A stretch of 64,000 bases of DNA from Fibrobacteria bacterium (GTDB lineage Bacteria; Fibrobacterota; Fibrobacteria; UBA11236): contig JANYDA010000009.1 of assembly GCA_025360005.1 (NCBI GenBank), positions 124,001-188,000 of the forward strand. Reading direction: 5' to 3'. A program made the position numbers and the translations under genes. Under the pieces are notes generated by a model that did no database searches, was not told the DNA's origin, and saw nothing but the letters and a program-made list of their open reading frames with translations. This document shows, piece by piece, positions 23,471 to 46,403 of the stretch; position 1 is the first letter of the stretch; each line of letters opens with the position of its first letter.

Positions 23471-23595
23471 TTTTGCAAATTGCAAATTGAAAATTGCAAA
23501 TTGTAAAACCGAAGATACGGAGCCCAGGCGTTGGTACGCATTGGGCTCTTTCAATTTGCATCCTTCAATTTTCGATTTTCAATTCGCAAAATTCC
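23471..23595. repeat. 125-base imperfect inverted repeat of GCAAATTG-type units
   Basis: The left arm (about 23471-23503) is built from repeated GCAAATTG and GAAAATTG octamers. The right arm (about 23551-23595) carries the same units in inverted order, with a few mismatches and one 5-base insertion. In the middle GAGCCCA (23520-23526) pairs with TGGGCTC (23542-23548). The whole stretch fills the gap before the first oxidoreductase and is far more AT-rich than the coding DNA around it. It could fold into one long RNA stem, or it may be a miniature repeat element. Confidence 0.7.
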
Positions 23596-34664: not shown

Positions 34665-36683
34665 CTATTTCTTCTTCAAGTCGATGCGGATGGGCAGGAT
34701 GATGAACGGGATGCCTTTATGGTAGAGGCGGCGCTGCACGGCGAACACGGTATTGTTGTGCAGCAGGCGGGAGAAGATGGTCTCTTCCGGGAACACCAAC
34801 TGGCCCATGAAGAAAATGGCTTGCGGAAAGCGCTCGATGACTTCCGCCGCCACGTCCCCCGTGCCTTCCACCACGTCCGGGCTCAGGCTCATGATGCCCT
34901 CCGCGTAGATGCCGTTCCGCTTCACGAACTCGACGTATTGATCCAGTTCCTCCCGCACGTGCTTCTGCAGGTTCTCTATCTCTTCCACCCCTTTGAAGCT
35001 GCCCGCGTCCAGCACGCCCACTTCCACGAACACGATGTTCTTGAAGATGCCGCCGAACATGCGGATGATGGCCAGCAGGGAATGCAGGCCGATGCCGTTG
35101 AACCCGTTGACCAGCAGCACGGCCGTTTTCGCCTTGGGGTCGAATTTCACTTCCGCGCCTAGGCCCCCCATCTGCTTGGGCATGTTGCCGGTGTCCTTGG
35201 TTTTGGCGATGGCGACCAGGTTGTCCATTCGCTTGAGCACCTTCTCCACGAAATTGTAATGTCCTTTGATGGCCATGGAGAGCGCGATGAGCGCGCCGGT
35301 GATCACCAAGGTGATCCAACCGCCCTGGCGGAATTTCAGCACGGTAACGGCCACCAGTATGAAAGAGCAGAGGATCAGGCCGGCCGTATTCACCATGAGC
35401 TTGCGGCGCCAATGCTTCAGCTCGCTGCGGTTGTTGAGCCAATAGCGGACCATGCCCAATTGCGAGAGCACGAAGGTGACGAACACGGTGATGCTGTAAA
35501 GGACCACAAGGTACTTGACCGAGCCCTTGGTCAGGATCATGGTGGCCACCGAGGCCGCGCCCATGATGAAGATGCCGTTCTGGGTGACCAGCCGATCGCT
35601 GAGCAGGCTGAAGCGGGTGGGGAACCATTTGTCCAAAGCCATGTTGGCGAGTACCCGAGGGCCGCCCATGAATCCGGCCTGGGCGGCGGCGAACAGGATC
35701 AGGGCTTCCGAGATGAGGGAAACGTAGACGAACCAATGTCCGCTGGATCCCGGCCAGCCGGCGGTAATGCTCTCGAACAGGACCGCGTTCAAGGTCTTGC
35801 CGGGCTGGTGCTGCACTTTATAAAGCAGGTAGGCCAAGGTGAGGCCGAATACCGTGAAGGCAAGCGAGACCGCCATGTAGAGCATGGTGCGCTTGCCGGT
35901 GCGGACCTTGGGTTCGCGCAGGATGGAGAGGCCGTTGCTGACGGCTTCGATGCCCGTATAGGTGCCGGCGCCCATGCTGAAGGCGCGCAAGAGCAGGAAG
36001 GCCATGCCCATCAGGCCAAGCTCCGAATGGGTCTTGGCCACTTGGGCGCTGGTCTCCGCGGCCAGGGCGGGGAAGTCCAGCATATGCGTTCCCAGTGCGT
36101 AGACGATGGCGAAGGCGTGAGAGAAGACGAATACCAGGAAGATGGGCACCAGCGGCATCACCGTTTCCTTGGCGCCGCGCATGTTGAGGATGGTGAGCAG
36201 CACCAGCGCCAGCAGCGAGAACCCCAGCTTGTAATGGAGGTATTGCTCGGGGATGAAACTGAAGATGGCATCCGCGGCGCTGGCGATGGAGATGGTGATG
36301 GTGAGGACGTAGTCGATGATCAGGGCGCATCCGGAGACCATGCCCGCGGTGGGCGAAATCAGTTTGCTGGCCACCAGGTAGCCGCCGCCGCCGGAAGGGA
36401 AGACTTCGATGAGCTGGGCATAGCTGGCGCTGATGAGGAGCACGGTGACCGCGGATGCGATGGCGATGAGGATGGCCAGATGCGTGTGCGCGCCCAAGGC
36501 CAGGAAGGCTTCCTCGGGACCGTATGCGGAAGAGGACAGACCGTCGGAGCCCAGGCCCACCCAGGCGAAGAAGGCGGCCAGGGTAATGCTGTGGAATGCC
36601 TGTTTGTTGGTGGGATCGATGGCTTTGCCGATGATGAGGCATTTAAGGCGATAGGCGAGGGAGGGTTTGGCGGATTTTACCAT
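34665..36683 (-). CDS. APC-superfamily transporter, possibly KimA-type potassium/proton symporter
   Basis: 672 residues. About 12 membrane helices lie in the first 460 residues, including GLGSDGLSSSAYGPEEAF, the unwound first-helix motif region of this APC subgroup, and YTGIEAVSNGLSILREPK. A cytoplasmic C-terminal domain of about 200 residues follows. The GLSSSAYGPEE signature and long soluble tail resemble KimA/YdaO-type potassium importers, which are often annotated as amino-acid permeases. Its place immediately downstream of a full Kdp system supports potassium, but the substrate cannot be read from sequence. The 154-base upstream gap 36684-36837 contains no clear promoter match. Confidence 0.8.
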   Translation of the reverse strand: MVKSAKPSLAYRLKCLIIGKAIDPTNKQAFHSITLAAFFAWVGLGSDGLSSSAYGPEEAFLALGAHTHLAILIAIASAVTVLLISASYAQLIEVFPSGGGGYLVASKLISPTAGMVSGCALIIDYVLTITISIASAADAIFSFIPEQYLHYKLGFSLLALVLLTILNMRGAKETVMPLVPIFLVFVFSHAFAIVYALGTHMLDFPALAAETSAQVAKTHSELGLMGMAFLLLRAFSMGAGTYTGIEAVSNGLSILREPKVRTGKRTMLYMAVSLAFTVFGLTLAYLLYKVQHQPGKTLNAVLFESITAGWPGSSGHWFVYVSLISEALILFAAAQAGFMGGPRVLANMALDKWFPTRFSLLSDRLVTQNGIFIMGAASVATMILTKGSVKYLVVLYSITVFVTFVLSQLGMVRYWLNNRSELKHWRRKLMVNTAGLILCSFILVAVTVLKFRQGGWITLVITGALIALSMAIKGHYNFVEKVLKRMDNLVAIAKTKDTGNMPKQMGGLGAEVKFDPKAKTAVLLVNGFNGIGLHSLLAIIRMFGGIFKNIVFVEVGVLDAGSFKGVEEIENLQKHVREELDQYVEFVKRNGIYAEGIMSLSPDVVEGTGDVAAEVIERFPQAIFFMGQLVFPEETIFSRLLHNNTVFAVQRRLYHKGIPFIILPIRIDLKKK

Positions 36684-36837: not shown

Positions 36838-38478
36838 CTAGGAGTTTTCGGATTCCTTAAGGATCGCGAAAATATCCGCGGGGTGGTTTTTATGCCGTAG
36901 CAGGTTCCGCAAAGATCGGTTCTGCATCAACCGTCCCGTGACCGCCAGCAGTTGCAGGTGGGAGCGGTGCCCTTCCTTGGGAGTCAACAGCAGAAATACG
37001 GCCTCGATGGGCATTTCCGTGAATGCGTCCAGGATCCCGGCGCGGCAGATGCCCAAAGCCACCATGGGCGCCTCCAATCCTTCCATGCGGGCATGGGGCA
37101 AAGCTACGCCTTCATTCAAGAAGGTGGAACCCTGGTTTTCCCTCTCGAGCAGTTTTTCCAGCAACGCTTCGCCCGTGAACGGGGATCTGCCTTTCAAGGT
37201 TCTCACCAGCGCTTTCATGGCCTGGAACTTCGTCAGGGGTTCGTCCCAGATGACTATCTGATCCGGCTTCAGGAAATCGGTAAGCCGTATCCTATCCGGG
37301 CCCGTTCCCGGAGCGCTTGCGGAAGCCGCGCGGGGCCCGCCTTCCTTTCCCGGTACGGAAGGATGGTTGTTGATGACGATGAGGTTGAACGGACCTTCGT
37401 TCCGGAGCAACCTTCCGGCCACGTCCCGGGATCGGAATTTTTTCCACCAGGGCCGGGGACGCGGCTTCCCGATCAGGACATGGCCCACGCGGTATTCCCC
37501 GGCGAACCGGGTCAGGGTGTCCGCGACGTTTTCGCCTTTCAATGTGAACACGGTGGCGCCGAGCTGATTGGCAAGGGTAAGCGTGTCGGCGAGCAGACGC
37601 TGGCGTCCCGCATCGATGGCGGTAGGCTCCTCGTCCAAAGTCTGAACGTAGACGGCGTACCAATTCCGGTTCAAGCGGCCCGCCAGCCTTGACCCGTAAC
37701 GGAGCAGGGTCGCGTTCTCCGGCCCGCGGGCGTCCAGGCATACCATGACCTGATCGGTGGCGCCTTTGCCGCCTTCGCCCGTCATCTCCCGCCGGCGGAA
37801 GTCGATTTGCGAGGCGGCTTCCCGCAGCGTCAATTCCCGCAGCTGTTCCAGGTGCGCGGCCTGGAAAAAATTCACCAAGGCCACCGGCACCCTTTCCATG
37901 GGATAGATCTTTCCCTCGCGCAGGCGCTTTTGCAAATCCTCCGGGGAAAGATCCACGTTGACGATCTGATCCGCTTCGGCGAGCACGGAATCCGGCAGGC
38001 GCTCCCGTACCTTGACGCCGGTGGAGCGCTCCACCGTATCGTAAAGGCTTTCCAGATGCTGCACGTTCAAAGTGGCGATGACGTTGATCCCCGCGGCCAG
38101 GATGTCCTCCACATCCTGGTACCGCTTGGCGTTCCTGCTTCCGGGCGCATTGGAATGCGCCAGCTCATCCACCAGGACCACCTTGGGCCGGCGCGCCAGG
38201 ATGGCGTCCAAATCCATTTCCTCCACTGCGATCCCGTGGTATTCCGAGATTTGCATCGGGATCCGATCCAACCCTTCGATAAGCTGCCCGGTCTCCTTGC
38301 GTCCATGGGATTCGGCCACGCCGATGACAAGGTCGATGCCTTCCGCCTGCAAGCGATGGGCCTCCTGGAGCATCAGATAGGTTTTGCCCACGCCGGCGGC
38401 ATAGCCCAGATAGATTTTCAAGCGGCCCCGCCTGTCCCGGCGGATCATCTGCAGAAACGATGCGGCTTTGTCGGCCAT
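36838..38478 (-). CDS. Kinase-less KdpD sensor fused to a PTS EIIA domain
   Basis: 546 residues. The N-terminal KdpD domain (about 1-230) has the Walker A GYAAGVGKT (25-33), VLVDELAHSNAPGS near 102-114 and LNVQHLESLYDTV. A USP-like domain follows (about 240-375, VMVCLDARGPENATLLR). There are no membrane segments and no histidine-kinase domains. Instead the C-terminus (about 400-546) is a PTS EIIA type-2 (PtsN/fructose) domain, with LNEGVALPHAR and the phosphorylatable His at about 462. In enteric bacteria separate EIIA-Ntr binds and stimulates KdpD; here the two are one chain. It is the last gene of the kdpFABC operon, 12 bases after kdpC. Confidence 0.9.
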   Translation of the reverse strand: MADKAASFLQMIRRDRRGRLKIYLGYAAGVGKTYLMLQEAHRLQAEGIDLVIGVAESHGRKETGQLIEGLDRIPMQISEYHGIAVEEMDLDAILARRPKVVLVDELAHSNAPGSRNAKRYQDVEDILAAGINVIATLNVQHLESLYDTVERSTGVKVRERLPDSVLAEADQIVNVDLSPEDLQKRLREGKIYPMERVPVALVNFFQAAHLEQLRELTLREAASQIDFRRREMTGEGGKGATDQVMVCLDARGPENATLLRYGSRLAGRLNRNWYAVYVQTLDEEPTAIDAGRQRLLADTLTLANQLGATVFTLKGENVADTLTRFAGEYRVGHVLIGKPRPRPWWKKFRSRDVAGRLLRNEGPFNLIVINNHPSVPGKEGGPRAASASAPGTGPDRIRLTDFLKPDQIVIWDEPLTKFQAMKALVRTLKGRSPFTGEALLEKLLERENQGSTFLNEGVALPHARMEGLEAPMVALGICRAGILDAFTEMPIEAVFLLLTPKEGHRSHLQLLAVTGRLMQNRSLRNLLRHKNHPADIFAILKESENS

Positions 38479-38490
38479 GCGGACAATCTC

Positions 38491-39072
38491 CTATTTCATG
38501 CCGTCAAGGGCGAGATTCAGCATGAGTACGTTTACCCCGGGATCGCCCAGCACGCCCAGGCTGCGCCCGCGGATATGGTTCCGGATCAATGCAACTATCC
38601 GAGGAGCCGCAAGGCCGCGCGCGCGGGCCACGCGATCCGCTTGCAGGAGCGCATTGGCTGGGCTGATCTCCGGATCCAGACCGCTCCCGGAAGCGGTTAC
38701 CGCATCGGCGGGAATGAGGACGTTCGCCGCCAATCCGTTTTCCTTGCGATAGGCGGCGACCCGCTCCTTGACGGCGTCGAATTGCTTTTGCGAGGTGGGC
38801 CCCAGATTGCTGCCGCTTGAGTTGGCGGCATCGTAGCCGTTGCCGGCGGCGGAAGGGCGGGGATGGAAATATTTCTCCGCGGCGAAATTCTGGCCCAGGA
38901 GTTCCGAACCCACGGCCTTGCCCTCGCGTTCAATCAGGGAGCCGTTCGCCTTAGCGGGGAATAGCGCCTGGGAAAGGCCCCAGATAGCCGCGGGGTAGAT
39001 GCCGCACAGCAGAATCAAAGTCAGCAGGGACACCAACAGGGAAATCTTGAGTTGTTGCAGCCCGTTTTTCAT
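38491..39072 (-). CDS. kdpC: Potassium-transporting ATPase subunit C
   Basis: An accessory subunit of the Kdp pump. 193 residues. It has one N-terminal membrane helix (LLVSLLTLILLCGIYPAAI), then ANGSLIERE and the family blocks SELLGQNFAAEKYFHPRPSA, SGSNLGPTSQ, and VTASGSGLDPEISPANALLQ. It ends VNVLMLNLALDGMK. The start at 39072 lies 2 bases from the kdpB stop; a GTG-free alternative ATG at 39084 would overlap kdpB by 10 bases and add four residues. Part of the kdpFABC operon. Confidence 0.95.
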   Translation of the reverse strand: MKNGLQQLKISLLVSLLTLILLCGIYPAAIWGLSQALFPAKANGSLIEREGKAVGSELLGQNFAAEKYFHPRPSAAGNGYDAANSSGSNLGPTSQKQFDAVKERVAAYRKENGLAANVLIPADAVTASGSGLDPEISPANALLQADRVARARGLAAPRIVALIRNHIRGRSLGVLGDPGVNVLMLNLALDGMK

Positions 39073-39074
39073 GG

Positions 39075-41099
39075 TTATACCCATCCTGCCAGGTTAAGGC
39101 AAAAGTCGATGATTTTGATGCCGAGGAACGGACTGATCACTCCGCCCAATCCGTAGATGAGGAGATTGCGCCGCAGGATGGCGCCCGCGGCCATGGGACG
39201 GAAGGACACGCCTTTCAAAGCCAGCGGTATCAGCGCGATGATGACCAGCGCGTTGAAAATCACCGCGCTCAGGATGGCGCTATGCGGCGACCCCAGGCCC
39301 ATCAGGTTCAAAGGCGCTATCTGCGGATAGGCCCCCAGCAGCATGGCCGGGATGATGGCGAAATATTTGGCCACGTCGTTGGCGATGCTGAAGGTGGTGA
39401 GCACGCCACGCGTCATGAGCAACTGCTTGCCTATCTCCACGATTTCGATCAGCTTGGTGGGATTGGAATCCAGGTCCACCAGATTGCCGGCTTCCTTGGC
39501 CGCCTGGGTTCCCGAGTTCATGGCCACGCCCACGTCGGCCTGCGCCAGGGCCGGCGCGTCGTTGGTGCCGTCACCGGTCATGGCCACCAGGTGGCCTTTA
39601 GCCTGCTCTTTGCGGATCAAGGCGAGCTTGTCCTCCGGCGTGGCTTGCGCCAGAAAGCCGTCCACGCCCGCTTCCTTGGCGATGGCGGCGGCCGTGAGCG
39701 GATTGTCGCCCGTGATCATGATGGTGCGGATGCCCATGGCGCGGAAGCGGAGGAAACGATCGGGCAAGCCGCCCTTCACGATATCCTTGAGGTAGACGGT
39801 CCCCAGCACGCGCCTTTCATCGGCCACCAGCAAGGGCGTGCCGCCCGCGCGGGAGATCCGTTCCACCGCCTCCAGCACTAAAGGCGGGCAGGCTTCCTTC
39901 GCGAACTTGAGCACGGAATCGGAGGCCCCTTTGCGGATGGAGCGCCCATCGGTATCCAGTCCGCTCATGCGGGTTTGGGCCGTGAACGGGACGAACCGGG
40001 CGGACGGCATTTCGTGGATTTGCCGGGCGCGGATGCCGAACTGCTTTGCCAGAACCACTATGCTCCGGCCTTCCGGCGTCTCGTCGGCAAGCGATGCGAG
40101 TTGCGCCGCGTCCGCCAGTTCCAGGGAGGTTACCCCCGGGGCGGGAAGCAATTCCACGGCCTGGCGGTTTCCCAAGGTGATGGTGCCGGTCTTGTCCAGG
40201 AGCAATACGTCCACGTCGCCGGCCGCCTCGATGGCGCGGCCGCTCATGGCCAGCACGTTCTTCTGCAACAGCCTGTCCATGCCCGCGATGCCGATGGCGC
40301 TGAGCAGGCCCCCGATGGTGGTGGGGATGAGGCAGACCAGCAGGGATACCAGCGAGGTGACGGAGAAGAAAACGCCGCCGTAGGTTCCGAACGGCCGCAT
40401 GGCCATGATCACCGCCAGAAAGATGATGGTCATCCCGGAAAGCAGGATGGACAAGGCGATCTCGTTGGGGGTTTTCTGCCTGGTGGCACCTTCCACCAGG
40501 CCTATCATGCGATCGAGAAAGCTCTCTCCGGGGCCCGCGGTGACCTTGATCTTGATCCAATCGGAAAGGACCGTGGTTCCCCCCGTGACCGCGCTGCGAT
40601 CGCCGCCCGCTTCGCGGATGACGGGAGCGGATTCGCCCGTGATAGCGCTTTCATTGACCGTGGCGGCGCCCTCGATTATCTCCCCGTCCGCCGGGATGAT
40701 TTCATTCGCCGTGACCATGATGATGTCGTCCTTACGGAGATCTTCGGCGGAAACGGAACTGATCATGCCGTCCTTGTCCACCCGGGTGGCGTTGGTCTTG
40801 GTCCTGGCGTTCCTGAGCGTGTTGGCCTGCGCCTTGCCGCGCCCTTCCGCGATGGCTTCGGCGAAGTTGGCGAACAAAACCGTGAACCATAGCCACAGGC
40901 TGATCTGCAAAACGAATCCCAGCGACTCGTGGTTCGCCCGTAATGCGAAAAGCTGGGCCGTGGTGATGGCCGCGGCGATTTCCGTAACGAATATGACGGG
41001 GTTTTTCACCAGATGGACCGGGTTCAGCTTAAGTACCGCCTGCAGCAGGGCGGTAAGCAGGATTTTCCTGTCGAATAGGGAGTTCTCTTGTCTTTTCAT
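39075..41099 (-). CDS. kdpB: Potassium-transporting P-type ATPase subunit B
   Basis: The catalytic ATPase of the Kdp pump. 674 residues. The phosphorylation motif is [11 protein letters not shown]. The TGES motif appears as [12 protein letters not shown], and the hinge/ATP-binding end is [34 protein letters not shown] block and helices at both ends are typical. The ATG at 41099 is preferred over 41105 because AGAGG lies 8 bases before it and only 2 before the earlier codon. It lies 12 bases after kdpA. Confidence 0.97.
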
Positions 41100-41111
41100 T
41101 TTCATATCCTC

Positions 41112-42821
41112 TTAGAAAAGCTTTCCGGACAGCATGAGGAAGTGTTCCACCACCGGGCCCATGACCAGGGCGGGCAGGAAGGTGAGCCCTCCCACGATGA
41201 TGATGACGCCGATGATGAGCATGGTGAAAGTGATCCCGGAGACGGGAAAACTTCCGGCGCTGGCGGCGGCGATTTTCTTCTTGGCCAGGTTCCCGGCCAA
41301 CGCGAGGACGGGGATGATCATCAGGAACCGGCCGATGAGCATGGCGAAGCCGAGCGTGGTGTTGTACCAGGGATTGTTGGCGCCGATGCCGGCGAAGGCG
41401 CTGCCGTTGTTGCCCGTGCCGGAGGAGAACGCGTACAGCAGTTCGCTGAATCCATGGGGGCCGGCATTGTTCAAAGCGGCCGTTCCCCATTTGGTTGCGG
41501 CGGCCCAGGCGGAGAATCCCAGGATGGAGAAGGCGCCCACCAGGGCATAGAGAACCGCCACCTTAACATCGAAGGCTTCGATTTTCTTTCCCAGGTATTC
41601 CGGAGTGCGCCCCACCATGAGGCCGGCTATGAAAACGGAAAGCACCACGTAGACGATCATGGCGTACAGCCCGGCTCCCACGCCTCCGAAGATCAACTCC
41701 CCCAACTGGATATTGAAGAGCGGCACCAGGCCTCCCAGCGGCGTGAAGGAATCGTGCATGGCGTTCACGGCTCCGCAGGATGCGTCGGTTGTTACCGTGG
41801 CGAAGAGGGCGGAATTGAAAATCCCGAAACGGACTTCTTTGCCCTCCATATTGCCGCCGGCAGGATCCACGCCCAGGGTGGAGAGCAAATGATTGGGATG
41901 GGCCTCGGCCCACCAGCATACCAAGGTTCCCGCCAGGAACAGGATGGCCATGGCGGCCCAGACGGACCAGCCGTGTTTCTGGTTCTTGACCATGCGGCCC
42001 AGGTAATAAGTGAGGCCGCTGGGAATGAGGAAGATGGAAAGCATCTGCACGAAATTGCTCAAGGCATTGGGGTTCTCGAAAGGATGCGCGGCATTGGCGT
42101 TCATGAAACCGCCGCCGTTGGTGCCCAACATCTTGATGGCGACCTGCGAAGCCATGGGGCCTTGCGCGATGGTCTGGCTCCCTCCTTCCAGTCCAATCGC
42201 CGCCGTGTAGGCGGAGAAGTTCTGGATCATACCCTGGGAGACCAGGAACAAGGCGTAAACCACGCACATGGGAAGCAGCAGGTACAGGGTGGTCCGGATC
42301 AAATCCACCCAGAAATTCCCCAGCGTCCGGGCGGATGCCCGGGCTATGCCCCTCACCAGGGCCGCGGCGATGGCGATGCCGACCGCCGCAGACATGAAGT
42401 TATGCCAGGCCAATCCCACCATTTGCGAGAAGTAGGATAGCGTGGTTTCCCCCACATAGCTTTGCCAATTGGTATTGGTGGCGAAGCTGACGGCGGTATT
42501 GAACGCCAGGTCCGGCGTGGCGGCGGCGAATTTCTGGGGATTGAGGGGAAGTAAATGCTGCGCCCTCAGGATCAAGTACGTGATCAGCGTGCCGACCAGA
42601 CTGAATAGGAGCATGGACGAGGCGTAGCCTTTCCAGTCCTGTTCCTTTTCATCCACCCCGCAGAAGCGGTAGAATATCCTTTCCAACGGGCCCAGGATGG
42701 GGGAGAGAATGTTTTTGCCTCCCGGAGTGAGTACCTGGAGCAGGTAAAGTCCCATGGGCTTGGTGAGCAGGAGCAGGATGAGCAGAAAGAGAAGCAATTG
42801 GATGCAACCGAACATATCCAT
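41112..42821 (-). CDS. kdpA: Potassium-transporting ATPase subunit A
   Basis: The channel-like potassium-binding subunit. 569 residues with about ten membrane helices and the four-repeat MPM-type pore architecture. Visible family blocks include LNTAVSFATNTNWQSY near 118, GTNGGGFMNANAAHPFENPN near 230, SCGAVNAMHDSFTPLGG near 345 and SSGTGNNGSAFAGIG near 465. These match the four selectivity-filter segments. The ribosome site is AGGAGG, 7 bases upstream. It lies 12 bases after kdpF. Confidence 0.97.
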   Translation of the reverse strand: MDMFGCIQLLLFLLILLLLTKPMGLYLLQVLTPGGKNILSPILGPLERIFYRFCGVDEKEQDWKGYASSMLLFSLVGTLITYLILRAQHLLPLNPQKFAAATPDLAFNTAVSFATNTNWQSYVGETTLSYFSQMVGLAWHNFMSAAVGIAIAAALVRGIARASARTLGNFWVDLIRTTLYLLLPMCVVYALFLVSQGMIQNFSAYTAAIGLEGGSQTIAQGPMASQVAIKMLGTNGGGFMNANAAHPFENPNALSNFVQMLSIFLIPSGLTYYLGRMVKNQKHGWSVWAAMAILFLAGTLVCWWAEAHPNHLLSTLGVDPAGGNMEGKEVRFGIFNSALFATVTTDASCGAVNAMHDSFTPLGGLVPLFNIQLGELIFGGVGAGLYAMIVYVVLSVFIAGLMVGRTPEYLGKKIEAFDVKVAVLYALVGAFSILGFSAWAAATKWGTAALNNAGPHGFSELLYAFSSGTGNNGSAFAGIGANNPWYNTTLGFAMLIGRFLMIIPVLALAGNLAKKKIAAASAGSFPVSGITFTMLIIGVIIIVGGLTFLPALVMGPVVEHFLMLSGKLF

Positions 42822-42833
42822 GACTCATCCTCC

Positions 42834-42917
42834 TCAGAATTTTTCCGGGTAAAACAAGGTGGCGAAAAGATATCCGAGCAACGCCAGGCACAATACGGCC
42901 ATGATCAGGGTGGCCAT
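42834..42917 (-). CDS. kdpF: Potassium-transporting ATPase subunit F (27 residues)
   Basis: A very short single-helix stabilising subunit of the Kdp complex. The reading frame encodes 27 residues starting MATLIMAVLCLALLGYLF and ending LFYPEKF, with the LLGYLxxxL...PExF pattern of KdpF. The GGAGGG ribosome site lies 7 bases before the ATG at 42915-42917. It follows the 34-residue peptide gene by 2 bases and precedes kdpA by 12, the normal operon position. Confidence 0.93.
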   Translation of the reverse strand: MATLIMAVLCLALLGYLFATLFYPEKF

Positions 42918-42919
42918 GA

Positions 42920-43024
42920 TCAACCCTCCCTGCCGTTTTGCGTATCCTGATTGCCGAAAAGGCGCAGACCCAAACCGCAGAGGAGGAAAAACCCTACCGT
43001 AACGGCTACGTAAACAAAGTCCAT
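42920..43024 (-). CDS. 34-residue membrane peptide between the histidine kinase and kdpF
   Basis: The frame starts MDFVYVAVTVGFFLLCGLGL and ends NGREG. There is one predicted hydrophobic helix (about 3-22), then a polar tail (about 23-34). A perfect AAGGAG ribosome site is 6 bases upstream. The start lies 1 base after the histidine-kinase stop, and the stop lies 2 bases before kdpF. Position, spacing and ribosome site argue that it is translated. Similar short peptides preceding kdpF or kdpA occur in other phyla from memory, but I cannot verify that here. Role inferred: Kdp assembly or sensor coupling. Confidence 0.75.
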   Translation of the reverse strand: MDFVYVAVTVGFFLLCGLGLRLFGNQDTQNGREG

Positions 43025-43025
43025 T

Positions 43026-44858
43026 TCAGGCTCCTTGGCCGTCCCCGGCCGCTTGCAATGTGAATGAGAAGGTGGTCCCCTTGCCTTCCGCGCTGGTCAC
43101 ACCCATTTCCCCGCCATGGGCCTCCACCACTTCCTTGGCGATGGCGAGCCCCAGACCCGCTCCGCCCGGTTCGCCTTCGCGGGTGCCGCGGTAGAACTTT
43201 TCGAAAACCCTGGGCATTTCCGAGGCCGGTATGCCCACTCCGGTATCCGCCACGCTGAACAGCACGGCTTGGCCGCGGGCGGCGGCGCGGATTTCCACGC
43301 GGCCGCCGGCAGGCGTGTATTTCAACGCGTTGGTAAGCAGGTTGGCGAGAATCAGGTGGACGCGGGAAGGATCCGCGGAAACCTTGGGCAGCGCCGCATC
43401 CGCCGCATGGTCGAGCTTGATGCCCTTGTCCTGGAAGGCATGCCGGACCGCATCCAACGACTGGAGGATCAAATCCTGGGCATCCATGGGCTGCAGTTTC
43501 ATCTTGAGATTGCCGGAGCGGATGCGGCCGATGTCCAGCAGGCCTTCGATGATCCGGTGCAAGCGTTCCGTATCCTCGCGCGCGGTCACCAGCAGGTCGG
43601 CCTGGCGCGGGTTCAGTTCCCCAACCTTTTCATCCAAAAGCAGATGGACCGCCATCCTCACCGAGGTCAGCCGGGTCTTGAGTTCATGGGACACGGTCGC
43701 CAGCAGATCGCTTTTGCTTTCGTCAAGCTTCCGCAATGCCGTTACGTCGGCCAGCACCAGGGTCATGCCGTTGAGCAGCTTGGACTCATCCAGGATGGGA
43801 ATGAGATGGGGCAGGAAAAAACGCTCATTCCCGTCGGGGAAAACCTGGATGGCGGACTGGTAGCCTTCCGGGTTGAAGGCGCGCAGATGCTCCCCCACTT
43901 TCCGGAACAACGGTTTGAGCCAATCCAATCCCAGCGAATCCACGTGGGTGCCGGGTTTGATCGCGAACAGGGATTGCGCCGGATTGTTGGACATCTCGAT
44001 CGTCCCGTCCGCGCTGATGACGGCCACGGCGTCCGGCAGGCTGTTGATCGCCATTTGCGTTGTCTTTTGGGTGCGCATCAATTTCGCCTGGTCCGTCCTC
44101 CGGAATTCCCGCAGCCGCGCGGTCATGGCGTTGAAGGCTTCCGCCAACTGCCCCAACTCATCCCGCGACTTGGCCTCCAAAGCCAGGTCCAGATTGCCCC
44201 GTTCGATTTCCTGCGCGGATCGCGTCAGGGTCCGCAGCGGCTTCAGGATTGCCTTGCCCAGGAGGTAGAAGAAGAGCAGCACCAGGGCCGCTCCGGAGGT
44301 CAGCAGCAACGTCATGGCCTTGCGGGCGGCCCGCGCTTCCGCGCGCACTTGGCCGTCCGTGGAAAGGACGTTCCGGGAATTCACATCCGCGATGGAGCTG
44401 GCATGGCTCCGGATCGCTTGGAAATACGGCCTCACCGCTTTCAGGTAGTAACTCCGGCGTTCCCCTATCGATCGTTGCGACGGGGGCATTCCCGCATAGT
44501 TGGCGGCAAAGGATTCCCAGGCGATAGCCAGACTGTCGGTAAAAGCCTTTTCGCCGCGGACGGTCACATTGCCTTTTTGGAAATCCAGGCTGCGGTTGAA
44601 TGTCCGGATCTCGGATTTGACCGCGGCCGTGTCGAGATCGGCGTTTTCCCAGAGGCTTTCCAACAGAGTCTGGTTCATTTCCTCCGCCGCCTGCCGCATC
44701 TCCCGGCTGGCGTTGATACTGGTGAGGTTTTCCCGGAAGATCCGATCGAAAGATTGGGAGACCCTTTCGATGACTACGCTCCCCAGTCCGGCTATCGTGA
44801 CAAGCAGTAGGGAGAGGCAAGCGAAGGCTATCAGGAGTTTATGGCGGAGTCCGAGCAT
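43026..44858 (-). CDS. Membrane histidine kinase of the Kdp system (HAMP-PAS-HisKA)
   Basis: 610 residues. The first membrane helix is about 4-30 and an extracytoplasmic four-helix sensor is about 31-180. The second membrane helix is near 183-205, HAMP near 205-255, and PAS near 265-375 (INSLPDAVAVISADGTIEMS). HisKA has ATVSHELKTRLTSVRM with His391. The HATPase domain has NLLTNALKYTPAGG, VADTGVGIP, and GAGLGLAIAKEVVEAHGG. The H-box Pro (SHELKTPLTS in relatives) is Arg, from a CCG to CGG type change at 43671-43673. I chose 44858 because the helix follows at once and a candidate sigma54 promoter sits directly upstream; longer starts (44936, 44981) are possible. It pairs with the regulator at 45027. 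Confidence 0.9.
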   Translation of the reverse strand: MLGLRHKLLIAFACLSLLLVTIAGLGSVVIERVSQSFDRIFRENLTSINASREMRQAAEEMNQTLLESLWENADLDTAAVKSEIRTFNRSLDFQKGNVTVRGEKAFTDSLAIAWESFAANYAGMPPSQRSIGERRSYYLKAVRPYFQAIRSHASSIADVNSRNVLSTDGQVRAEARAARKAMTLLLTSGAALVLLFFYLLGKAILKPLRTLTRSAQEIERGNLDLALEAKSRDELGQLAEAFNAMTARLREFRRTDQAKLMRTQKTTQMAINSLPDAVAVISADGTIEMSNNPAQSLFAIKPGTHVDSLGLDWLKPLFRKVGEHLRAFNPEGYQSAIQVFPDGNERFFLPHLIPILDESKLLNGMTLVLADVTALRKLDESKSDLLATVSHELKTRLTSVRMAVHLLLDEKVGELNPRQADLLVTAREDTERLHRIIEGLLDIGRIRSGNLKMKLQPMDAQDLILQSLDAVRHAFQDKGIKLDHAADAALPKVSADPSRVHLILANLLTNALKYTPAGGRVEIRAAARGQAVLFSVADTGVGIPASEMPRVFEKFYRGTREGEPGGAGLGLAIAKEVVEAHGGEMGVTSAEGKGTTFSFTLQAAGDGQGA

Positions 44859-44870
44859 GCGTCCGGCTAG

Positions 44871-44887
44871 TGCAATTGGAATGCCAA
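44871..44887 (-). promoter_or_regulatory. Candidate sigma54 (-24/-12) promoter of the histidine-kinase/kdp operon
   Basis: On the minus strand TTGGCAT (44881-44887) and TTGCA (44871-44875) carry the GG and GC dinucleotides exactly 10 bases apart. This fits the TGGCAC-N5-TTGCA consensus with a single mismatch. It lies 13 bases before the proposed ATG at 44858, so a transcript would begin almost at the start codon. The operon's own regulator (45027-46403) is a sigma54-type activator. A perfect hairpin CATCGCC/GGCGATG (44934-44940 with 44949-44955) stands further upstream between regulator and kinase. Confidence 0.55.
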
Positions 44888-45026
44888 CCGGAGTAGGGGT
44901 TAGGAGCCGGGTTAGATAGGCTTGGCGCCTTTGCATCGCCGCTTCGCAGGCGATGAAAATCGCGAAGCTTGCACTTTGCAAGAACGGGCGGGAGCCGCCT
45001 TGCAGACTGCAATCAGGGGTTCCGGG

Positions 45027-46403
45027 CTAGATGCCGTATTTCTTGCGCCGGCGCCACAAGGTGGCGGCATCGATGCCCAGGATCCGCGCCGCCTCGTCCA
45101 GGGATTTGGCGGCGGCCAGGATATGGCGGATATGCGCCTCTTCCAATTTATCCAAGGAAACGTCCGCGCCCACGTGGACGGGGCCTTCGCCATTGCCGGG
45201 TTTCAAGCCCAGTTCCGCGAGGCCTATCCGCGGTCCCCGCGCGATGATGGAGGCGCGTTCGATGACGTTGCGGAGCTCGCGGATATTGCCCTGCCAGGCA
45301 TGCGCCTTCATGGTCTGCATGGCCTCCTCGGTGAAGCCGTGGAATTGCCGCTGGTTCTTGCCTGCGTAGAAGGCCAGGAAGCGATGGGCCAGCAACGGGA
45401 TGTCCTCGGCCCTTTCGCGCAGCGGCGGTAATTCGATCTGGACCACGTTGAGCCGATACAGCAAATCCTCCCGGAACCGTCCCGTCTTGGCAAGGGCATC
45501 CAGATCCAGGTTGGAGGCGGCCAGGATGCGGATATCCGCCTTGCGGGTGGCGCTTTCGCCCACGCGCTCGTATTCATGCTCCTGCAGAAAGCGCAACAGC
45601 TTGGGCTGCACTTGCACGGGAAGATCCCCGATCTCGTCCAGGAACAGCGTGCCGCCGTCGTTGGCGGCGATGCGGCCGGGATGATCGCGCAGGGCCCCGG
45701 TGAAGGCGCCGCGCGCATGGCCGAACAACTCGCTTTCCAAAAGTTCCGCCGACAGGGAAGGGCAGGAGACCACGCCGAAGGGACGCGCCGCGCGCGCGCT
45801 CCAGGTATGGATGAGGCGCGCCAATACGCTTTTGCCCGTGCCGCTCTCGCCGCGGATAAGCACTCCCGCGTCCGTGGGCGCCACTTGCCGGGCCAGGGTA
45901 AGGGCCCTCTGCATGCCGTTGCTTTTGCTGTCCAGATCCGTGCCCGCATCGTCTTTGTCCGCGGCGGCTCCCAGCGCGGCCACGCCCGCTTCCGCCCGTT
46001 TGGTTTCCAAGGCGCGCGCAGCGATGCCCCGCACTTGTTCGGGGGTGAAGGGTTTGGGCAGATAGTCCACGGCCCCCAAGCGCATGGCTTCCACGGCCGT
46101 TTCCACGGAGGCATAGGCGGTGATGATGACGATCTTGATCCAGGGGCTGCCGGCGATGAAGTCGGCGATGAAGTCGGTTCCTTTCTCCGTGCCCAGGCGC
46201 AGGTCCAGGAAGAGGAGATCGAAGGCGTGCAGGGAAGCCTGCTGCAGGCCGTCGCGGCCGTTGCTGACGGAGACCACCCGATGGCCTTCCACTTCCAGGG
46301 CCATGGCCAGGGTCTTGCGGATATTGGCCTCATCATCCACGATAAGGATGTTTAGGCCGGCGCCGGGATTGGATCGCGGCCCCGGTTTCTGCTTGTCGGA
46401 CAT
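45027..46403 (-). CDS. Sigma54-dependent response regulator of the Kdp locus (NtrC family)
   Basis: 458 residues. The receiver domain spans about 17-130 with phosphoacceptor Asp67 in LLFLDLRLG and acidic pocket VDDE. The AAA+ domain has GESGTGKS, HARGAFTGALRD (the sigma54-contacting GAFTGA loop) and TLFLDEIGD. The C-terminal Fis-type helix-turn-helix is LDEAARILGIDAATLWRRR. Most Kdp loci use an OmpR-type KdpE; a sigma54-type regulator here is the less common arrangement seen in Bacteroidota-like Kdp loci. It is 168 bases before the kinase gene. Confidence 0.94.
   Translation of the reverse strand: MSDKQKPGPRSNPGAGLNILIVDDEANIRKTLAMALEVEGHRVVSVSNGRDGLQQASLHAFDLLFLDLRLGTEKGTDFIADFIAGSPWIKIVIITAYASVETAVEAMRLGAVDYLPKPFTPEQVRGIAARALETKRAEAGVAALGAAADKDDAGTDLDSKSNGMQRALTLARQVAPTDAGVLIRGESGTGKSVLARLIHTWSARAARPFGVVSCPSLSAELLESELFGHARGAFTGALRDHPGRIAANDGGTLFLDEIGDLPVQVQPKLLRFLQEHEYERVGESATRKADIRILAASNLDLDALAKTGRFREDLLYRLNVVQIELPPLRERAEDIPLLAHRFLAFYAGKNQRQFHGFTEEAMQTMKAHAWQGNIRELRNVIERASIIARGPRIGLAELGLKPGNGEGPVHVGADVSLDKLEEAHIRHILAAAKSLDEAARILGIDAATLWRRRKKYGI

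What the first reader, a model, noticed from the sequence alone, without database searches (positions are those of the whole stretch)
36838..38478. KdpD sensor fused to a PTS EIIA domain in a single chain
The sequence shows a KdpD N-terminal domain and USP-like domain with no membrane or kinase parts, ending in an EIIA type-2 domain with its phosphorylatable His462 (VALPHAR). Established work in E. coli shows that separate EIIA-Ntr (PtsN) binds and stimulates KdpD. Here the two are physically joined while the kinase is a different protein, so nitrogen/carbon phosphotransfer status could set potassium uptake directly. No HPr- or EI-like gene is visible to say what phosphorylates His462.
Basis: partly seen in the sequence, partly recalled or inferred. 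Interest (0 to 1): 0.8.

Follow-up and report, generated by a model that had tools for sequence, protein, structure and literature searches.

The report
PTS-wired soluble KdpD potassium regulator
A gene in a bacterial potassium-uptake operon joins the sensor/kinase end of the potassium regulator KdpD to a phosphate-accepting domain of the sugar/nitrogen phosphotransferase relay; the same joined protein occurs in at least 82 genomes from several phyla, usually in the same operon, so it probably wires the cell's energy state into potassium uptake.

Summary
Window 36838-38478(-) encodes one 546-aa chain: KdpD domain (PF02702), a Usp fold, and a C-terminal PTS EIIA type-2 domain with His462. It is not an assembly artefact: full-length fused homologues occur in 82 genomes (own phylum, Aminicenantes, Syntrophaceae relatives, Desulfobacteraceae, Lentisphaeria, and most often the Chlorobiaceae class, 42 of 98). 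In 66 aligned copies the phosphoacceptor His and its partner Arg never vary. The operon is conserved: sigma-54 response regulator, histidine kinase, kdpABC, fusion, often with a KimA-like K+ importer; a sigma-54-type promoter and paired TTGCA-N3-TGCAA sites lie upstream.

'No kinase parts' is wrong: the KdpD domain is a serine kinase that phosphorylates and inhibits KdpB, and its catalytic residues are kept here. The missing phosphoryl donors exist elsewhere in the genome (EI, GAF-EI, HPr; no EIIC hit). The genome, like all sampled fused genomes of its phylum and of the Chlorobiaceae class, lacks a diadenylate cyclase, so c-di-AMP, the known signal for short KdpD, is unlikely.

Best reading: a PTS-controlled short KdpD that adjusts K+ uptake, probably through KdpB phosphorylation. 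The biochemistry is untested. I found no earlier description.

The parts
36838..38478 (-). KdpD-Usp-EIIA fusion gene, 546 aa
   Evidence: conserved full length in 82 genomes
37804..38433 (-). KdpD domain (residues 16-225), atypical serine-kinase domain; Walker A G25-X5-G31K32T33, Walker B D104/E105, R185
   Evidence: PF02702 E 3.5e-92; motif counts over 66 homologues; 2r8r TM 0.96
37369..37758 (-). Usp-like domain (about residues 241-370)
   Evidence: AlphaFold2 model and Foldseek match to 7ji4, TM 0.86; no Pfam hit
36853..37275 (-). PTS EIIA type-2 domain (residues 402-542)
   Evidence: PF00359 73 bits, cut-off 27; 3urr TM 0.85
37093..37095 (-). codon of predicted phosphoacceptor His462
   Evidence: aligned with PtsN active-site His; 66 of 66 fused homologues
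38491..39084 (-). kdpC
   Evidence: PF02669 E 1.6e-68
39075..41105 (-). kdpB, with TGES motif (target of the serine kinase in E. coli)
   Evidence: E1-E2 ATPase and hydrolase domains; TGES read in the translation
41112..42821 (-). kdpA
   Evidence: PF03814 E 3.4e-236
42834..42917 (-). kdpF-like ORF, MATLIMAVLCLALLGYLFATLFYPEKF
   Evidence: read from the sequence printed; named by resemblance and position only
43026..44981 (-). histidine kinase ORF (4HB, HAMP, PAS, HisKA, HATPase); the part conserved with homologues begins near ATG 44858, the likely true start
44871..44886 (-). sigma-54-type -24/-12 promoter TGGCATTCCAATTGCA
   Evidence: score 16.5 of 17.8, shuffle p 0.003 or less; same place in other loci
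44969..44981 (.). palindrome TTGCA-N3-TGCAA, candidate response-regulator site
45000..45012 (.). second palindrome TTGCA-N3-TGCAA, 31 bp further from the promoter
45027..46403 (-). NtrC-family sigma-54 response regulator
   Evidence: PF00158 E 5.7e-62, PF00072 E 3.1e-24
34665..36683 (-). KimA-like potassium importer, directly downstream of the fusion gene
   Evidence: phmmer to KimA 6s3k E 6.1e-63; near the fusion in 10 of 38 other loci

Best explanation
The protein is a soluble short KdpD that has gained a PTS EIIA domain as an extra signal input. EI or GAF-EI and HPr, encoded elsewhere in the genome, phosphorylate His462 according to the PEP (and perhaps nitrogen) state of the cell. The EIIA phosphorylation state then switches the KdpD-Usp part. 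The likeliest output is the serine-kinase activity of the KdpD domain on KdpB, encoded two genes away, which in E. coli shuts the pump. Transcription of the operon is set by the histidine kinase and the sigma-54 response regulator acting at paired palindromes. Shown here: architecture, conservation, operon, presence of donor genes, absence of the known c-di-AMP cyclase family, kept catalytic residues. Inferred: His462 phosphorylation, its effect on the serine kinase, the role of the palindromes, and the sign of the effect.
For: Full fusion in 82 genomes; His462 and Arg446 66/66, with E447, T452 and P461 also invariant. Serine-kinase residues kept: G25, G31-K32-T33, D104, R185 66/66, E105 65/66; TGES in KdpB of all 36 fetched loci that carry kdpB, 34 of them fused. 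The KdpD domain is the KdpB serine kinase, and a short KdpD was shown to do it in vitro (PMC11018627). EI found in all 12 fused genomes tested for it; HPr, EI, GAF-EI and a separate EIIA in the own genome, no PF02378 EIIC. Diadenylate cyclase PF02457 absent in 5/5 own-phylum and 20/20 Chlorobiaceae-class fused genomes, present in 15/16 unfused split-KdpD genomes. The window's Usp keeps little of the c-di-AMP motif (CLDARGPE against (A/G/C)XSXSX2N). kdpABC directly before the fusion in 34 of 38 further fused loci. Separate EIIA genes near kdp in Archangium, Methylocella and Magnetospirillum; about 10% of alphaproteobacteria carry a ptsN copy in the kdp operon (PMC13104625).
Against: No biochemistry. 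PtsN is known to act on KdpD through its histidine-kinase or GAF part, which this chain lacks (PMC9239096). The adenine-stacking Trp (E. coli W39) is Tyr in the window and Cys or His in three relatives in its phylum. In four fused loci kdpABC is not beside the fusion, so KdpB is not an evident target there. The fusion also occurs in genomes with a diadenylate cyclase (32 of 60), so EIIA is not simply a replacement for c-di-AMP.
Confidence: 0.45

Rival explanations
1. The EIIA domain works as in E. coli: its phosphorylation state sets how the fusion protein binds and stimulates the separate histidine kinase, so the main output is transcription of the kdp operon through the sigma-54 regulator.
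For: PtsN stimulates KdpD through the transmitter or GAF domain in E. coli and rhizobia (PMC9239096, PMC13104625). The histidine kinase and sigma-54 regulator lie in the same operon in most fused loci, also where kdpABC is missing (L196, L225, L228).
Against: Unfused split systems have the same kinase, regulator and promoter without EIIA, so the EIIA domain is not needed for that pair. No interaction evidence.
Confidence: 0.33
2. The fusion binds and regulates the transporters directly (KdpFABC or the KimA-like importer) through the EIIA or Usp part, without using serine-kinase activity.
For: KimA-like gene near the fusion in the window and in 10 of 38 other loci, four of them without kdpABC nearby. 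PtsN binds TrkA and YcgO in E. coli (PMC13104625).
Against: The serine-kinase motifs are almost invariant, which would be unexplained.
Confidence: 0.15
3. The EIIA domain is a passive passenger or phosphate sink without a role in K+ control.
For: The second active-site His (507) is Gln in about half of the homologues.
Against: His462, Arg446 and the surrounding motif are invariant over 66 homologues; the fusion has been kept in several phyla.
Confidence: 0.06
4. Artefact: a sequencing or assembly error joined kdpD-N and an EIIA gene.
For: None found.
Against: Same open frame in 82 genomes, one of them on a single 6.5-Mb contig, G327.
Confidence: 0.01

Closest known systems
Short KdpD (KdpD/Usp only), e.g. 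Deinococcus geothermalis DgKdpD; NCBIfam NF038185 KdpD_non_kinase
   Same: KdpD domain with serine-kinase motifs plus Usp, no histidine-kinase part; encoded with kdpABC; the tree places fused and unfused short forms together, apart from kinase KdpDs
   Different: Extra EIIA domain; scores 347 against the NF038185 cut-off of 550; own genome has no PF02457 diadenylate cyclase; accompanied by its own histidine kinase and sigma-54 regulator
PtsN (EIIA-Ntr) acting on KdpD in E. coli, P. putida and rhizobia
   Same: EIIA type-2 fold and active site; potassium control; regulatory PTS
   Different: There a separate protein acts on a membrane histidine kinase; here a domain is fused to the soluble KdpD-Usp part; TIGR01419 cut-off not met (57.6 against 138.7)
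ptsN copies inside kdp operons of alphaproteobacteria (PMC13104625)
   Same: EIIA encoded together with kdp
   Different: Separate genes, full-length KdpD kinase with KdpE; no fusion
Split KdpD systems with serine-kinase and histidine-kinase on two chains (PMC11018627)
   Same: The two activities are on two chains
   Different: There the commonest partner is TM/GAF/DHpCA; here a 4HB-HAMP-PAS kinase with an NtrC-type regulator, and EIIA on the short chain

Membership tests
KdpD domain family PF02702 | Pfam gathering score | tested here: met
   308 bits, cut-off 26.1
NCBIfam NF038185 KdpD_non_kinase | curated score cut-off 550 | tested here: not met
   347.3 bits, residues 7-340
KdpD atypical serine kinase | Walker A G-X5-GKT, Walker B D/E, adenine Arg | tested here: met
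   66/66, E105 65/66; motif definition PMC11018627
KdpD atypical serine kinase | adenine-stacking Trp (E. coli W39) | tested here: not met
   Y34 in window; Y 42, W 14, F 7, C 2, H 1 over 66
KdpD atypical serine kinase | phosphorylates the Ser of TGES in KdpB | not testable with these tools
   TGES is present in the operon's KdpB
Canonical KdpD histidine kinase | TM, GAF, DHp and CA domains | tested here: not met
   no HisKA, HATPase or GAF found by Pfam
PTS EIIA type 2 (PF00359) | gathering score and active-site His | tested here: met
   73 bits, cut-off 27; His462
PtsN equivalog TIGR01419 | curated cut-off 138.7 | tested here: not met
   57.6 bits
PTS EIIA type 2 | phosphorylation by HPr | not testable with these tools
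   HPr and EI genes are in the genome
c-di-AMP-binding KdpD Usp | motif (A/G/C)XSXSX2N..(Y/F) | tested here: not met
   CLDARGPE with later Y in the window; motif from PMC8214093

The most novel reading that the evidence does not exclude
A phosphorelay-controlled serine kinase: the PTS, through a fused EIIA domain, gates KdpD-domain phosphorylation of the K+ pump, serving as the signal in lineages that lack diadenylate cyclase, so that PEP status sets potassium uptake after translation.
Probability: 0.35. Interest if true: 0.85.

Novelty: new variant of a known kind. Interest (0 to 1): 0.72.

Why it matters
The PtsN-KdpD link was known from Proteobacteria as contact between separate proteins. 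Fusion of the two kinds of domain in distant phyla is independent evidence that PTS input to potassium control is widespread and selected. It also bears on a question left by the 2024 serine-kinase work: what signals to short KdpDs where c-di-AMP is not made. The protein is soluble and its donors are standard, so a test in vitro is direct.

Tried and rejected
Assembly-error reading: rejected by conservation. Residue 507 is mostly H where diadenylate cyclase is absent (26 H, 2 Q) and mostly Q where it is present (27 Q, 5 H), but it changed only once on the tree, so this is not evidence. Link of EI with the fusion across the Chlorobiaceae class: uninformative, EI is in 90 of 98 genomes with or without the fusion. 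Sigma-54 promoter directly before kdpA in the window: not found; it lies between regulator and kinase instead. That promoter pattern fails in most of the Chlorobiaceae class (2 of 14 regions). A third palindrome at 23473-23485 is in a low-complexity A/T stretch and was dropped. Sequence search of the Usp part in the PDB gave only chance hits for the window. Paper searches found no description of the fusion; the open-access library is incomplete and supplements were not readable.

Full report
What is there. The minus-strand ORF 36838-38478 encodes 546 aa. Pfam finds KdpD (PF02702, residues 16-225) and PTS_EIIA_2 (PF00359, 402-542) and nothing else. NCBIfam aligns the first 340-369 residues with KdpD models and the end with PtsN/fructose EIIA models, all below their curated cut-offs. 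The AlphaFold2 model (mean pLDDT 82, pTM 0.46, low-confidence linker 374-394) shows three folds matching KdpD-N 2r8r, the KdpD Usp 7ji4 and PtsN 3urr.

Operon. On the same strand, in order of transcription: sigma-54 response regulator (45027-46403), histidine kinase with 4HB-HAMP-PAS-HisKA-HATPase (43026-44981, true start probably 44858), kdpF-like ORF, kdpA, kdpB, kdpC, the fusion, then a transporter whose best solved relative is KimA (6s3k, E 6e-63).

Distribution. Within the window's phylum the full fusion is in 5 of 168 genomes: four of the six held of the same genus (own included) and one of another family at 51% identity. Class surveys then gave full-length fusions in 16 of 142 genomes around the first Aminicenantes, 16 of 42 around the Syntrophaceae, 42 of 98 around the Chlorobiaceae and 2 of 198 around the Lentisphaeria. 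With the Desulfobacteraceae that makes 82 genomes.

Conservation. Over 66 full-length copies (six are second reads of the same locus) His462, Arg446, Glu447, Thr452 and Pro461 never vary; the second active-site position 507 is His in 34 and Gln in 32. In the KdpD domain the serine-kinase residues named in PMC11018627 are kept (G-X5-GKT, D104, R185 all 66/66; E105 65/66), but the Trp next to Walker A is usually Tyr.

Origin. On a tree of the KdpD-Usp part, all short forms separate from kinase KdpDs; the fused label needs three changes, and one clade is not rejected (AU p 0.33). This fits one gain and two losses but does not prove it.

Synteny and control DNA. In 38 further fused loci read at up to 20 kb, kdpABC is directly upstream in 34, a same-strand sigma-54 regulator in 34, and a KimA-like gene nearby in 10; four loci have no kdpABC in the stretch read, and all four have a KimA-like gene. 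Between regulator and kinase lies a -24/-12 promoter-like site: 29 of 31 regions outside the Chlorobiaceae class pass shuffle p 0.02, against 2 of 14 within it (the scoring weights are my own). Upstream are TTGCA-N3-TGCAA palindromes, perfect in 21 of those 31, often in pairs 31-33 bp apart. In the window the palindrome occurs 3 times with 0.06 expected. Two unfused split systems share this layout (L231, L232), so it belongs to the split Kdp system rather than to the fusion.

Signal. The own genome (98% complete) encodes HPr next to EI, a GAF-EI, a second EIIA and no PF02378 EIIC, that is, a PTS that looks regulatory; other EIIC families were not searched. All 12 fused genomes tested for EI have it. 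Diadenylate cyclase is absent from all 25 sampled fused genomes of the own phylum and the Chlorobiaceae class and from 3 others, and present in 32 fused genomes and in 15 of 16 unfused split genomes. The window's Usp also lacks the two Ser and the Asn of the c-di-AMP motif. So c-di-AMP, the signal shown for the D. geothermalis short KdpD, is unlikely in this organism, and the EIIA domain is the one recognisable input.

Mechanism. The KdpD domain phosphorylates KdpB at the TGES serine and stops the pump, also in a short KdpD (PMC11018627). The most economical reading is that the EIIA phosphorylation state gates this activity. The main rival is the known route, contact with the histidine kinase (PMC9239096; PMC13104625). 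Sequence does not decide between them, nor the sign: unphosphorylated PtsN is active in E. coli and rhizobia, phosphorylated PtsN in P. putida.

Comparison. It works like a short KdpD plus PtsN but meets neither curated NCBIfam cut-off, so I file it only at domain level and call it a new variant of a known kind. I found no paper describing it; the library is incomplete.

Noticed in passing
window 44871-45012: Sigma-54-type promoter and paired TTGCA-N3-TGCAA palindromes between regulator and kinase, conserved in distant phyla; a candidate sigma-54-controlled Kdp system.
   Followed up: yes
L194, L196, L225, L228: Fusion and histidine kinase near a KimA-like importer with no kdpABC within the stretch read; the module may control KimA there.
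   Followed up: partly
L056:1555-2076, L057:1465-1971: Archangium: separate EIIA gene about 1.5 kb upstream of kdpA, with an unfused short KdpD in the operon.
   Followed up: partly
L081:11368-11838; L063:11367-11834: Methylocella and Magnetospirillum: separate EIIA gene just after the kdpE-like gene.
   Followed up: no
window 42920-43024: 34-aa membrane-like ORF (MDFVYVAVTVGFFLLCGLGLRLFGNQDTQNGREG) just before the kdpF-like ORF.
   Followed up: no
G391, G418, G433, G436, G437: Several genomes of the Chlorobiaceae class carry two copies of the fusion; some second copies have an in-frame TAA within the match.
   Followed up: no
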